A stretch of 64,000 nucleotides of DNA, taken from positions 49,704 to 113,703 of IMG/VR virus record IMGVR_UViG_3300044730_000313, one strand, 5' to 3'. This stretch comes from a virus. Under the pieces are notes generated by a model that had not been told where the DNA came from, searched no databases, and saw only the letters and a program-made list of their open reading frames with translations. Positions 67 to 32,900 of this stretch are shown piece after piece. A program made the position numbers and the translations under genes. Positions within the stretch are counted from its first letter, which is position 1, and every line of letters begins with the position of its first letter.

Positions 67-3000
67 TTAGAGATTTTTGAAAGCTTTGACCACTGAGCTA
101 TTTAGGCTCTTCTTTTTGCTCACACTTATTCCTTTTCTCCCACCTCTTTTGTATTGTTCTTCTATCTCCTCCGCTGTAAACATTTGATCATCAAGCTCTT
201 GTTCAGTGATTGGGGCAGGGGCTTGAACTGCAGGTGCTGAAGGAGCTGCTGCTGGAACTTTTCCTTGTGAAACAATTGGAGGTGTGGCAGTAGTACCAGG
301 AGCCATTACTTGGTACTGCTTTCCATCAGGACCAACATACACTGTAGGTATCTGAGGTTGGAAAGGAGCGTTCATATTGATGGTTCTGAAGCGTGGGTCA
401 TAGCGGAAGTTGTACAGATTCTCGTATGTGGCTAACTTCCTGTTTTCCAATTGGTTACGCATGAACTTATCTCCAATAGAACTCAAGGCAGACTGTGTAA
501 TAGCTTTAGTCTTAGACTTGGCAGTTTCTTGTCTTACGTACTGTCTGTCTAGTATTTCTAGGTTTTTCAGACCGAACTCATTCAAGAGGTTTCTATTCTC
601 TCTGTATACAGCATCCTTCATAGCCTGATTAGCTCTGAACTGCTCACCTAGCACCTTTTGGTTAGCTGCATACTTTTGAGCGTTTAGCATAGACTGAGCA
701 GCAGGGTTATATCCCAGCATCCTTTGTTGTGATCTGAAGGCAGCTTCGTTCTCATTCAAAATATCCTGATAGGATATATCATAAGGAACAGACAGCTGAG
801 GTTGGAGTGTTTGAGCCTGTACAGGTTCTAACTGGTTATTAGCCAAGGCATACATCTCACCAATCAATTGTCTTGGATCAAGTTCTTCTGTATCTGTAGG
901 TCTAACGTAAGGAAGCACCTGACCGATTATATCCAATAAGGGATTTCTCTTATAAGGAGTGATGGGAATGACAGATGGACGTGCGGTTGTTTTATCATCT
1001 GTAGTGGTAGCAGTGGTCTTCTTCTCAACATTAAGCTCACCTGAAGCAATACTAGTTGGAGTTTTCTTTGGTAGAGCAGCAATGTATTGTTCAGTGCGAG
1101 GACCAAAGAACATATCTAAGTTGGTGTCAAGAATCTCATCTGTTGAAAGCTTCTTTAGGTCATCTAAAGAATTGATACCCTTTGCTTTAGCTCTTGCTGT
1201 TACAGTGCCAGCATCCAAGATTATTTTCTTAGCAATGTCAGGGAAATACGCATGGTATCTCTTTTGAAGCTCTAATATATATGGATTTTTCTTTCCTGGA
1301 TTCTGAGCATTTGCTGCTTTAGCTTTTTCATACAGCTCCATTATTTGTCTCACCTTTGCCTCTTCAGTGGTGGCAATTGGATAGTCTGATGCATCAGCTA
1401 CATCTGCAGCAATAGTATTTACAACAGGTGCTGCAGCAGCTCTTGTAGACAATGGAACTACCGCTGGAGTTATCACTTCTTCTTCTGTATCAGGAAAATC
1501 TATAGGTGCTGCAACAGGAGCGAACGGAACAGTAGCTTTTGCAGGAGCTGCTGCAGGAGCTGTTTGTTGCATTTGTTGAGCTGTTGCTTTTGGAAGCGAT
1601 GGTACTGACATAGGAATTCCTAAAGGACCAGTTGCTCCTGAGGGAAGCATCATCTTCATTGCGGGAGCCACTTGTCGTGCAGTTCTTGAAACTCCAAGAA
1701 CAGGTGACAATATAGGTCCAAATAATCCTCCAAATTGAGCGTTTTGTTTTATAGCCTTCTTGTCCATCTTCACTTTACCTCTAGCCAAATCATCAGCAAC
1801 CAATCCCATTTCTTCAGCTGTATCATTGATGGCATTCTGCAAGGATGCAGCAGTCATCTTCTTATCTGCAAGCTCTTTGAGTTTTTGATTAGCTCCTAAC
1901 ATAGTGTATTGCAAGGAGTTGAGTGTCATTTTATCTATAGGCGTGCTCACCTCAAAGTCTTCTAACATCTGCGTTGCTTTATCAAGCTTTTTGTTCTGCT
2001 TGTTCTCTTTCTTAGATAGATCAGCCACATAGGTTTTGAACTTCTTACCCTTAGCCTCTTCTCCAAGCATTGGAATATAAGACTTAGGTATCTTGAGATT
2101 ACCAAACACTACAAGGTTAGAATCACCACTTGTGCCATCTTGTAGCTTTACAGCAGGTTCACCTCTTTCCACCTCTACAGGGTTCTCACCATAGGTGATA
2201 CCAATACCAGTGTTTCCTCTTCCATCAGACTCATCGTGGGATTGACCTCTGAACATGATAGTTTCACCACCATCTGGTAGATAGGGATTCTGAGACATTG
2301 TTTCTGCATATCCACCCCAGTGTGTCTGGAGCTCTCCACCCATTTGCATAGCTGGTCTTTCTGTAGACATAGCTCGTGCACTAGGAGGAGTGTAGGCTTT
2401 CAGGTGACCACCAGCTCTGAGCATATCTGCATCATGAGGAGGCTTTAGAAGGTCTTTTACATTGTGCCCTCCAAAGGATACAATCTTCTGTGGTTGCCAT
2501 GTATGACTTACCCATTTGTATGGAGATGTCATTCCACCATCTTCCATGTTAGCACCAAACTGTTGCTGAACACCTATTCCAAAGTTTTGTCCTACAATTT
2601 TGTTTATGTTTTGTCTAGACAAATCTTGTTGATTCTCAATCTTTTTCTCTTGTAGTCTATCAATTGCAGACCCTATGAACCTAGTTGCAAAACCGATGGG
2701 TCCACCAAACAAACTACCAACACTACCAAGCACCTCACTATATCCACCAGTTGTACCTCCTCCAGCAATGTTAGCAAGTTGTTGACCTTGTGAACTTCCC
2801 AAAGCATCCATAAATGCTCCACCACCAGCAGCCTTATGCAGCTTACCACCATGATAGAATTGCTTGTAACGCTCACTATCATTCAAGGGTTCATATCCAA
2901 GATTGTCATAAAGTGTACCAGGAGCATAGGTGTTCATGATTTCTCCACCCCCTACAGATGCTCCAAACTCAGCAAGCACATTTGTACCTACGCCATAAGA

Positions 3001-3720
3001 TGGGAACATTTGTTCTGGTTGAAATGCCATATCTTCTGGTCTAAGATATTGTCTTCTAGGCTCTTGTACAGGTCTACTAGCAGCAGCCTGACCCATTACA
3101 TCCGTTAAAGCAGTTTGCTGTTTTGCTGCTCTATATGCTTCTCTTTGAGCCTTAATGTTTTGAATACCACCAATCACCTGACCAATAACAGGGATACCTT
3201 TTGCTAAGTTAGGCTTCTTTTTAGGGGACGGCATAGCTGGAACATTATAATCAGTTCCCCAGTTAAACTGTTGTTGCTGAAGGTTTTGTGCACTAGGTGT
3301 AAGTTGAGGGCCAGTAGGACCTAGTCCAGGAATCTCATTTCCTACCTGAGATTTTGCAACTTTCTTTCCTTTCTTGGCACCAGCCATTTCTGCAAACTGT
3401 GCCACCTGGCCCATGTCCATTCCACCACCTTGACCACCACCACTCTGAGCTATTTGAGCTGCAGCTTGTTGAATAGCTTCCATTTTAGCACGGTCAGCAC
3501 TGGTCATACCTGTAAACTGGTAATCAAGCTCATCATACATACCACGAACATCAGCAGGCTGATACATAGTGGAGGGTGCTTCACTGGTCATATACGTACC
3601 TATCTGAGCCTTCTTAAGCTCTTTACCATGCTTGGCCATGAATGCTTCTTCTGTAGGAAACTTCTTGTAGAATTCCTTTTCAGACTTAACACCAGCGATC
3701 TTTAGAATGTTCTTTTTCAT
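67..3720 (-). CDS. Large Gly/Ala/Gln-rich putative virion protein
   Basis: A 1217-residue protein, the most downstream complete gene of the minus-strand virion arm in this window. The first 45 residues are basic and end in a KHGKELKKAQ segment. A glycine/alanine-rich region follows (SGGGQGGG near residue 95), then a long Ala/Pro/Val-rich low-complexity stretch around residues 700-800 and a basic C-terminus. No enzymatic motif or membrane segment was recognised. The gene follows the 513-residue gene by one base and shares its low-complexity style. Its position at the end of the tail genes suggests a tail-associated or internal (ejected) virion protein. That role is inferred from context only. 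The start is an ATG giving MKKNILK. Confidence 0.7.
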   Translation of the reverse strand: MKKNILKIAGVKSEKEFYKKFPTEEAFMAKHGKELKKAQIGTYMTSEAPSTMYQPADVRGMYDELDYQFTGMTSADRAKMEAIQQAAAQIAQSGGGQGGGMDMGQVAQFAEMAGAKKGKKVAKSQVGNEIPGLGPTGPQLTPSAQNLQQQQFNWGTDYNVPAMPSPKKKPNLAKGIPVIGQVIGGIQNIKAQREAYRAAKQQTALTDVMGQAAASRPVQEPRRQYLRPEDMAFQPEQMFPSYGVGTNVLAEFGASVGGGEIMNTYAPGTLYDNLGYEPLNDSERYKQFYHGGKLHKAAGGGAFMDALGSSQGQQLANIAGGGTTGGYSEVLGSVGSLFGGPIGFATRFIGSAIDRLQEKKIENQQDLSRQNINKIVGQNFGIGVQQQFGANMEDGGMTSPYKWVSHTWQPQKIVSFGGHNVKDLLKPPHDADMLRAGGHLKAYTPPSARAMSTERPAMQMGGELQTHWGGYAETMSQNPYLPDGGETIMFRGQSHDESDGRGNTGIGITYGENPVEVERGEPAVKLQDGTSGDSNLVVFGNLKIPKSYIPMLGEEAKGKKFKTYVADLSKKENKQNKKLDKATQMLEDFEVSTPIDKMTLNSLQYTMLGANQKLKELADKKMTAASLQNAINDTAEEMGLVADDLARGKVKMDKKAIKQNAQFGGLFGPILSPVLGVSRTARQVAPAMKMMLPSGATGPLGIPMSVPSLPKATAQQMQQTAPAAAPAKATVPFAPVAAPIDFPDTEEEVITPAVVPLSTRAAAAPVVNTIAADVADASDYPIATTEEAKVRQIMELYEKAKAANAQNPGKKNPYILELQKRYHAYFPDIAKKIILDAGTVTARAKAKGINSLDDLKKLSTDEILDTNLDMFFGPRTEQYIAALPKKTPTSIASGELNVEKKTTATTTDDKTTARPSVIPITPYKRNPLLDIIGQVLPYVRPTDTEELDPRQLIGEMYALANNQLEPVQAQTLQPQLSVPYDISYQDILNENEAAFRSQQRMLGYNPAAQSMLNAQKYAANQKVLGEQFRANQAMKDAVYRENRNLLNEFGLKNLEILDRQYVRQETAKSKTKAITQSALSSIGDKFMRNQLENRKLATYENLYNFRYDPRFRTINMNAPFQPQIPTVYVGPDGKQYQVMAPGTTATPPIVSQGKVPAAAPSAPAVQAPAPITEQELDDQMFTAEEIEEQYKRGGRKGISVSKKKSLNSSVVKAFKNL

Positions 3721-32245: not shown

Positions 32246-32253
32246 TGATTTAC

Positions 32254-32290
32254 GAAAGTGTCCTCAATCAGGGGACACTTTCTTTTATTC
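32254..32290 (+). terminator. Strong intrinsic terminator of the first early gene
   Basis: GAAAGTGTCC (32254-32263) pairs perfectly with GGACACTTTC (32273-32282), followed by TTTTATT. It isolates the 148-residue gene from the downstream RNA region. Confidence 0.85.
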
Positions 32291-32394
32291 ATTATATATA
32301 TGGGTGGGTAAACATGAAATGTTGATTGGGTGGGACTATAATCGATGCACAATGTATTGATTTTGTGTGAGTTAGAGAGTGGCTGTGTAACCCA

Positions 32395-32800
32395 TTGCAC
32401 CTTTTAGGGGGTAAAACCAGACATTGCTAATATGCATGTCTACAAAGAATATATATAGCATTAACCTAGCTAGCATATACATGGGAGAAATTTATTGTCA
32501 CATTCTATGTATGTTAACAAACCAGCCACTGTATAGTCTACGGGCTAGGTGTGGAGACAGTTGAGTGTAATGGAAACTATTACTATCTATCGCCATTATG
32601 CAATATAACCAGAATGATAGTGGGCAGCCTGGGAAGACAGGCATTAATGCACCATCCTAGCTTCCCAAGGGCTAGCGGTTGTAATATCCAATTGGAGGTA
32701 AAGATGCGAGTAGGACAATGCTGCCTTTAACCCAGCGAGCCCTCGATTTCAAGAACGCCAGTTCTTGTATTACAACTGAGTGCAGAGGGATATGTATAGG
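32395..32800 (+). ncRNA. Candidate structured non-coding RNA
   Basis: The 655 bases at 32246-32900 contain no convincing gene. The part from about 32400 to 32780 is full of complementary segments in order: TTTTA/TAAAA (32402-32416); AGACAT/ATGTCT (32419-32441); CCAGCC with GGCTAGG (32522-32549); GTGTAATGG with CCATTATGC (32565-32601, two G-U); TGGGAAG/CTTCCCA (32630-32667). Last comes a nine-base stem GTTGTAATA (32678-32686) with TATTACAAC (32768-32776). It encloses three directly abutting hairpins: TCC/GGA (32687-32696), GGTAAAG with CTTTAACC (32697-32732) and a perfect seven-base CAAGAAC/GTTCTTG (32750-32767). It lacks tRNA landmarks. The strand is inferred from the plus-strand arm. It may be a large ornate phage RNA of the GOLLD/ROOL kind or a new class. 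Confidence 0.6.
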
Positions 32801-32900
32801 TGTTCATCTGTTCTACTTCATAGAATAGAGGCTTTTTGGTGATGCAAAACCATATATTTTTATCTAAATCCTTATTAATCAATCATTTAAACTAATTAAC

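What the first reader, a model, noticed from the sequence alone, without database searches (positions are those of the whole stretch)
32395..32800. Large, compactly folding RNA candidate in a gene-free stretch of the early arm
A 655-base stretch without a convincing gene sits in an otherwise gene-dense phage. Its last 100 bases form a nine-base closing stem (32678-32686 with 32768-32776) around three directly abutting hairpins, one with a perfect seven-base stem and GCCA loop. At least five further stems precede it. This degree of zero-linker packing is typical of large ornate RNAs such as GOLLD and ROOL in phages, but I cannot match it to either from memory. It could be a new class.
Basis: partly seen in the sequence, partly recalled or inferred. 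Interest (0 to 1): 0.8.

Follow-up and report, generated by a model that had tools for sequence, protein, structure and literature searches.

The report
Divergent twister ribozyme in crAss-like phages
The gene-free stretch holds a probable self-cutting RNA, a divergent relative of the twister ribozyme that Rfam's models miss and that sits between genes in many crAss-like phages known from environmental sequence data.

Summary
The structured RNA is real, but it is not a GOLLD/ROOL-like giant. Window 32640-32793 (+) has the anatomy of a type-P1 twister ribozyme: P1, scissile U32645|A32646, 4-bp P2, P4 with a CCCAA loop, pseudoknots T1 (CCC:GGG) and T2 (two bases), and GAGGG. Across 56 divergent copies P4, P5 and P1 covary at nearly every pair; P2 and T2 show compensatory changes; T1 has one example. 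A covariance model built only from phage copies hits loci that Rfam itself scores as twister, at the same coordinates. Rfam's twister models miss the phage copies even at E<=10. The variant differs from canonical twisters in T2 (CC:GG for GC:GC), an extra U in L4, and the P5 arm. About 180 distinct copies were collected; 25 of 26 large contigs checked encode a Crassvirales capsid. Copies lie between genes in sense orientation. Most likely it cuts polygenic transcripts; cleavage was not tested. The three inner hairpins and most upstream stems are no more stable than chance. A second form carries a conserved domain inserted in the active-site loop.

The parts
32640..32793 (+). Whole twister-like ribozyme element (P1 to P1')
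   Evidence: structural alignment with 55 relatives; CM R1 hits the 5' half at 32639-32709, E 5e-7, and 32710-32795 weakly
32641..32644 (+). P1 5' strand (pairs with 32790-32793; in this copy 2 Watson-Crick pairs and 1 G-U)
   Evidence: P1 register shown across copies; read from sequence
32645..32646 (+). Predicted scissile U|A dinucleotide
   Evidence: position equivalent to the twister U-A site in the Rfam consensus ccuuUAAcgCcGCC
32648..32651 (+). P2 5' strand UGCA (pairs with 32781-32784)
   Evidence: compensatory UGUA/UACA, UGCG/CGCA and AGUA/UACU in relatives
32652..32653 (+). T2 pseudoknot 5' strand CC (pairs with GG 32669-32670)
   Evidence: UC:GA in L144; GC:GC in canonical twisters
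32657..32661 (+). P4 5' strand CUAGC (pairs with 32671-32675)
   Evidence: 5 of 5 pairs change on both sides
32662..32670 (+). Loop L4 UUCCCAAGG: CCC (32664-32666) forms T1 with GGG 32787-32789; GG forms T2
   Evidence: near-invariant even in copies collected by their 3' half only; T1 compensatory CCA:UGG in L088
32676..32686 (+).
   Evidence: 9 of 10 pairs change on both sides
32687..32767 (+). Variable P5 domain with three hairpins, specific to this phage
   Evidence: no similar sequence in other loci held; inner part z -0.03
32768..32778 (+). P5 3' strand
32781..32784 (+). P2 3' strand UGCA
32785..32789 (+). L1 3' strand GAGGG: G equivalent to the catalytic guanine, GGG of T1
   Evidence: 132-135 of 135 copies at each position in copies collected by their 5' half only
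32790..32793 (+). P1 3' strand
32627..32642 (+). GC-rich hairpin (GCCUG/CAGGC) ending 3 nt before the cut; would end the upstream product
   Evidence: read from sequence; hairpins in this position are enriched across copies, 24% vs 4% shuffled
32522..32554 (+). Small conserved hairpin module CCAG-[CCAC]-UGUA-[UAGUC..GGCUA]-GGU-[GUGG]; function unknown
   Evidence: same module with compensatory inner stem in L022/L613, L057, L140, L156, L009
32295..32465 (+). Conserved block downstream of the 148-aa gene; probably promoter/leader DNA, not part of the ribozyme
   Evidence: conserved sequence, weak consensus structure, core motif once in this genome
32793..32865 (+). Conserved hairpin/U-tract segment 3' of the ribozyme, also found apart from it
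   Evidence: 76-98% identical in a dozen loci, sometimes upstream of a ribozyme

Best explanation
Window 32640-32793 (+) encodes a divergent twister-type self-cleaving ribozyme (type P1, with a long P5 arm). Shown: conserved sequence, covarying helices, the double-pseudoknot topology, P1 register, sense orientation between genes, and Crassvirales distribution. Inferred: once transcribed, loop L4 (CCCAAGG) folds back onto GAGGG (T1) and onto the CC after P2 (T2). This places the U32645-A32646 phosphate in the active site, and the RNA cuts there by 2'-OH attack. Inferred function: the cut divides the early transcript. The upstream RNA ends in a 2',3'-cyclic phosphate just after a hairpin. The downstream mRNA or small RNA begins with a 5'-OH capped by the folded ribozyme and its P5 domain, which may protect it from 5'-end-dependent decay.
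For: P2-T2-P4-T1-GAGGG order and spacing match canonical twisters (consensus printed), apart from one extra U in L4 and the P5 insertion. Structural scan gave 151 distinct hits and 0 in reversed sequence. Covariation over 56 copies: 92.1% of cells paired vs 33-46% when slid; 21 of 28 pairs with double-sided changes. P1 diagonal -1/0,-2/1,-3/2,-4/3 with z +2.3 to +6.5, not required by any search. CM R1, built from phage copies only, hits L336, L409, L372, L382 and L415 (E 9.5e-5 to 0.036), which Rfam scores as twister-P1 or twister-P5 at overlapping places. Active-site residues near-invariant in the unselected half of the copies. Downstream gene on the same strand 150:4, upstream 143:18. Hairpin just before the cut 24% vs 4%.
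Against: No cleavage data. Rfam twister models do not match the phage copies at E<=10 (window at E<=5). T2 is CC:GG where twister has a conserved GC, and the closing pair of L4 is C-G or A-U with an extra U. P1 is weak and in many copies not formed; contiguous length averages 2.5 bp, although P1 is reported dispensable in one twister (PMC5408937). T1 hardly varies, so covariation supports it only through L088 and canonical twisters.
Confidence: 0.86

Rival explanations
1. A twister-fold RNA that no longer cleaves, kept as a stable 5'-leader, protein-binding or regulatory structure.
For: P1 is weak in many copies; a few relatives have altered residues next to the cleavage site or in T2 (L147, L159, L548); the P5 domain is large and diverse.
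Against: Scissile U-A, the L1 guanine and T1/T2 bases are near-invariant where no search required them, as expected if catalysis is selected; P1 still covaries.
Confidence: 0.1
2. A large ornate RNA of the GOLLD/ROOL kind or a new giant class spanning 32395-32800.
For: 655-nt gap; whole-gap folding z -3.6; another conserved hairpin module at 32522-32554.
Against: No Rfam match to such families; 32465-32640 and the inner P5 hairpins are not conserved as a whole and not more stable than chance; in relatives other sequence, including apparent small genes, lies between the same landmarks.
Confidence: 0.03
3. A DNA-level element (origin, recombination or packaging site, mobile insertion) with inverted repeats.
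For: Several copies per contig in some phages; modular neighbours.
Against: Strong sense orientation to genes, G-U pairs and pseudoknot complementarity, and recovery of Rfam-scored twisters by the phage model.
Confidence: 0.01

Closest known systems
Type-P1 twister ribozyme (Rfam RF03160)
   Same: P1, U|AA, 4-bp P2, 2-base T2, P4, U-CCCAA loop, 3-bp T1, GAGGG, in the same order
   Different: T2 CC:GG instead of GC:GC; one extra U before CCC; L4 closed by C-G/A-U; long P5 with variable domain; weak P1; not matched by the Rfam model at E<=10
Type-P5 twister ribozyme (Rfam RF02684)
   Same: has a P5 helix at the same junction
   Different: in type P5 the ends of the molecule lie in P5 and P1 is closed; here P5 is closed and the ends lie at P1
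Twister-sister ribozyme
   Same: vague similarity in sequence and secondary structure reported between the two classes (PMC5408937)
   Different: no pseudoknots reported there and cleavage on the opposite strand (PMC5408937); pseudoknots are supported here
GOLLD / ROOL large phage RNAs
   Same: noncoding RNA in phage intergenic space
   Different: much larger; no sequence or structure match

Membership tests
Twister ribozyme | Three essential stems P1, P2, P4 (P0, P3, P5 optional) | tested here: met
   P4 5/5, P2 2/4 and P1 4/4 pairs with double-sided changes; P1 only 59% of cells paired
Twister ribozyme | Scissile dinucleotide with conserved A 3' of the cut, next to P1 | tested here: met
   U at -1 in 117/122; U, A, A conserved in copies collected by 3' half only
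Twister ribozyme | Pseudoknot T1 of 3 bp between L4 and L1 plus A-A | tested here: met
   CCC:GGG in almost all; CCA:UGG in L088; A of CCCA and A of GAGGG conserved
Twister ribozyme | Pseudoknot T2 pairing of two L4 bases with two L2 bases | tested here: met
   CC:GG, UC:GA in L144, GC:GC in canonical
Twister ribozyme | T2 made by the conserved GC dinucleotide; near-invariant G-C pair closing L4 | tested here: not met
   CC/GG and C-G or A-U with an extra U; reason to call it a divergent variant, not a canonical member
Twister ribozyme | Catalytic guanine in L1 | tested here: met
   first G of GAGGG 132/135
Twister ribozyme | Match to Rfam twister models | tested here: not met
   no match at E<=10 or for the window at E<=5; the reverse test, phage CM against Rfam-scored twisters, is positive
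Twister ribozyme | Self-cleavage at U|A giving 2',3'-cyclic phosphate and 5'-OH | not testable with these tools
   needs in vitro transcription or end mapping
GOLLD / ROOL / HEARO / OLE | Match to the Rfam covariance model | tested here: not met
   none at gathering or E<=5

The most novel reading that the evidence does not exclude
Crassvirales carry a distinct, elaborated lineage of twister ribozymes that processes their transcripts. Its second form has a conserved two-strand domain (GURG-AUAUAAAG..GUGAAA-CYAC) inserted in the active-site loop L4, which would make it a natural twister controlled by a ligand, protein or tertiary contact.
Probability: 0.2. Interest if true: 0.88.

Novelty: new variant of a known kind. 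Interest (0 to 1): 0.63.

Why it matters
What natural twister ribozymes are for is still largely open. Here is a lineage with at least 180 distinct copies, fixed orientation between genes and a defined group of phages, missed by current RNA annotation. It makes the question testable by mapping RNA ends in an infected culture. It also suggests that the twister core tolerates a re-paired T2, very large P5 domains and a conserved insertion in the active-site loop, which is useful for ribozyme searches and design.

Tried and rejected
Rfam at gathering threshold and permissive E-values for GOLLD/ROOL and others: nothing. Gathering-level absence of twister is uninformative, because the RF03160 cut-off of 67.2 bits also misses clear twisters. 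A tRNA or tRNA-like P5 domain: ARAGORN found none in 184 inserts; only L154 looks tRNA-like by eye. A P5 domain shared across phages: 122 of 184 inserts are singletons and the clusters are small. Search of cultured phages and of plasmids with the consensus: no real match. Pattern scan of bacterial genomes: scattered hits, mostly chance, used only as background. The conserved block 32295-32465 as an RNA: consensus structure weak. A DUF2828 RNA-binding gene as general partner: only in a minority of loci. Literature: no paper found in the open library describes a twister in crAss-like phages; most subscription papers are not covered.

Full report
Setting. The window is part of a 113.7-kb virus record in IMG/VR. 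It is a Crassvirales phage: its capsid protein matches Pfam Crass_capsid at 3.6e-27 and its terminase matches a PHROGs terminase family. The gap 32246-32900 lies after the 148-aa gene in the rightward arm.

From gap to motif. Related loci fetched through the 148-aa gene share short noncoding pieces with the gap. One is UUAAUGCACC..AGCUUCCCAAGGGCU-[long stem]-CUGAGUGCAGAGGG. Copies selected by one half usually carry the other half: 135 of 152 by the 5' half (at most 2 mismatches of 9), and 123 of 167 by the 3' half (at most 4 mismatches of 18). The 5' pattern occurs once in the window and once in the whole record; model R1 likewise finds only this place.

Anatomy. The consensus is N4-U|AA-UGCA-CC-AUAA-[P4]-UU-CCC-AA-GG-[P4']-[P5 ... 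P5']-A-G-UGCA-GA-GGG-N4'. I recognised the order as that of the twister ribozyme from memory and then tested it. The Rfam twister-P1 consensus printed by cmscan for a canonical copy has the same order: P1-UAA-P2(4)-GC-...-P4-U-CCCAA-GC-P4'-...-P2'-GAGGG-P1'. Reviews describe the same parts: three essential stems, optional P0, P3 and P5, two pseudoknots, a U-A cleavage site, and an active-site guanine (PMC5408937; PMC6154101). P5 is given there as present in 1% of annotated twisters.

Tests. (a) P1 was not part of any search, yet the four diagonal pairs next to UAA and GAGGG covary (z +3.0, +5.6, +4.2, +2.7; +2.6, +6.5, +5.6, +2.3). Contiguous P1 length is 2.49 against 1.37 with shuffled partners. 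(b) In an alignment of 56 divergent copies (the middle of P5 was left out of each) the model pairs 92.1% of cells against 33-46% for slid versions. P4 changes on both sides in 5/5 pairs, P5 in 9/10, P1 in 4/4, P2 in 2/4, T2 in 1/2, T1 in none. The scan that fed this alignment required complementarity in P2, T1 and T2 and three of four pairs in P4, so those percentages are partly by construction. The first set, which required none of P1, P4 or P5, shows the same P4 covariation. (c) A structural scan for the twister anatomy over 4.8 Mb found 151 distinct hits and none in reversed sequence. They include P2 UGUA/UACA, UGCG/CGCA and AGUA/UACU, T2 UC:GA (L144), T1 CCA:UGG (L088), and canonical twisters with GC:GC. 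A looser version of the scan loses this specificity (84 hits in reversed sequence), so later sets were filtered for the CC:GG or UC:GA form. (d) A covariance model built from the phage copies only (R1) hits L336, L409, L372, L382 and L415; Rfam scores overlapping places as twister-P1 or twister-P5. (e) Rfam's own models do not reach the phage copies. The likely reasons are the altered T2 and L4 and the long P5 insertion.

The domain inside P5 is not shared with other loci held and not more stable than shuffles in this copy; over 127 unrelated copies the inner domains are modestly stable (mean z -0.83). The upstream part 32395-32640 has z -0.21. It does contain one small conserved module at 32522-32554 whose inner stem changes in a compensatory way in relatives.

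Distribution and context. Of 26 large contigs taken from the motif searches and from the search with the neighbouring 148-aa gene, 25 encode the Crassvirales capsid and 21 have an R1 match, 23 places in all. The gene after the element is on the same strand in 150 of 154 cases and the gene before it in 143 of 161, by a crude ORF caller. Some contigs have two or three copies, often 160-370 nt apart. A GC-rich hairpin ends within 14 nt of the cut in 24% of copies against 4% in shuffled sequence; the window copy has GCCUG/CAGGC at 32627-32642.

Mechanism. Shown: fold, conservation, orientation. Inferred: co-transcriptional self-cleavage at U32645|A32646, dividing the transcript. The upstream product would end just after a hairpin, and the downstream product would start with the folded ribozyme and its P5 domain at a 5'-OH end. 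The protective role of that cap is a guess.

A second form. In about 40 loci the same core carries an insertion between P4 and CCCAAGG: GURG-AUAUAAAG..GUGAAA-CYAC, followed by a CUGAUUAA/UUAAUCAG stem. A scan for the two strands gave 40 hits, with outer stem GUGG/CCAC in 28, GUAG/CUAC in 11 and AGAG/CUCU in 1; reversed control 2. The motif also occurs as a stand-alone hairpin in L613 and L654. An insertion in the active-site loop with conserved internal-loop sequence suggests control of cleavage, but this is untested.

Limits. Scan outputs were capped, so counts are lower bounds. Copies are related by descent, so covariation counts are not independent events. E-values from R1 are rough. No RNA data were available.

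Noticed in passing
L136 about 2630-2890 (+), L144 about 2886-3130 (- strand coordinates), and some 38 other loci: Second form of the ribozyme with a conserved structured domain (GURG-AUAUAAAG..GUGAAA-CYAC plus CUGAUUAA/UUAAUCAG) inserted in loop L4; the outer stem covaries.
   Followed up: partly
window 32522-32554; L022 (- strand) 4807, L156 3817, L057 (- strand) 2262, L140 (- strand) 3584, L009 7783: Small RNA module CCAG-[NCAC]-UGUA-[variable stem]-GGU-[GUGN]; in most of the other loci followed by a GCUUCAACCUGC tail. No known family recognised.
   Followed up: partly
window 32295-32465: Conserved block after the 148-aa gene (GGGUGGG twice, UUGAUU..UGUGAGUUAGAGAG, UAUAGCAUUAA), more conserved than the gene itself in the nearest relatives; one copy in this genome; possibly an early promoter of the phage polymerase.
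   Followed up: partly
window 32793-32865; L182, L098, L006, L025, L123, L156: Conserved hairpin/U-tract segment, 3' of the ribozyme here but just upstream of it in L123 and L156; looks like a phage-specific terminator.
   Followed up: partly
L120 3266-4651 and L609, L571, L050, L586, L624, L102, L577: DUF2828/DUF7788 (phrog_850, RNA-binding) gene about 210-720 nt downstream of the nearest ribozyme copy; a possible RNA partner protein.
   Followed up: no
L045 3500-5115: About 1.6 kb of apparently gene-free sequence with three ribozyme copies (3715, 4771, 4935), suggesting an array of small RNAs cut apart.
   Followed up: no
L144 (- strand) 2545: Triple change in T2: C-G to U-A together with G to A at the base before P2', hinting at a base triple.
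   Followed up: no
L372 6251-6786: A twister (Rfam twister-P5, 37.3 bits) within 500 nt of a Hammerhead type III match (42.5 bits, below cut-off).
   Followed up: no
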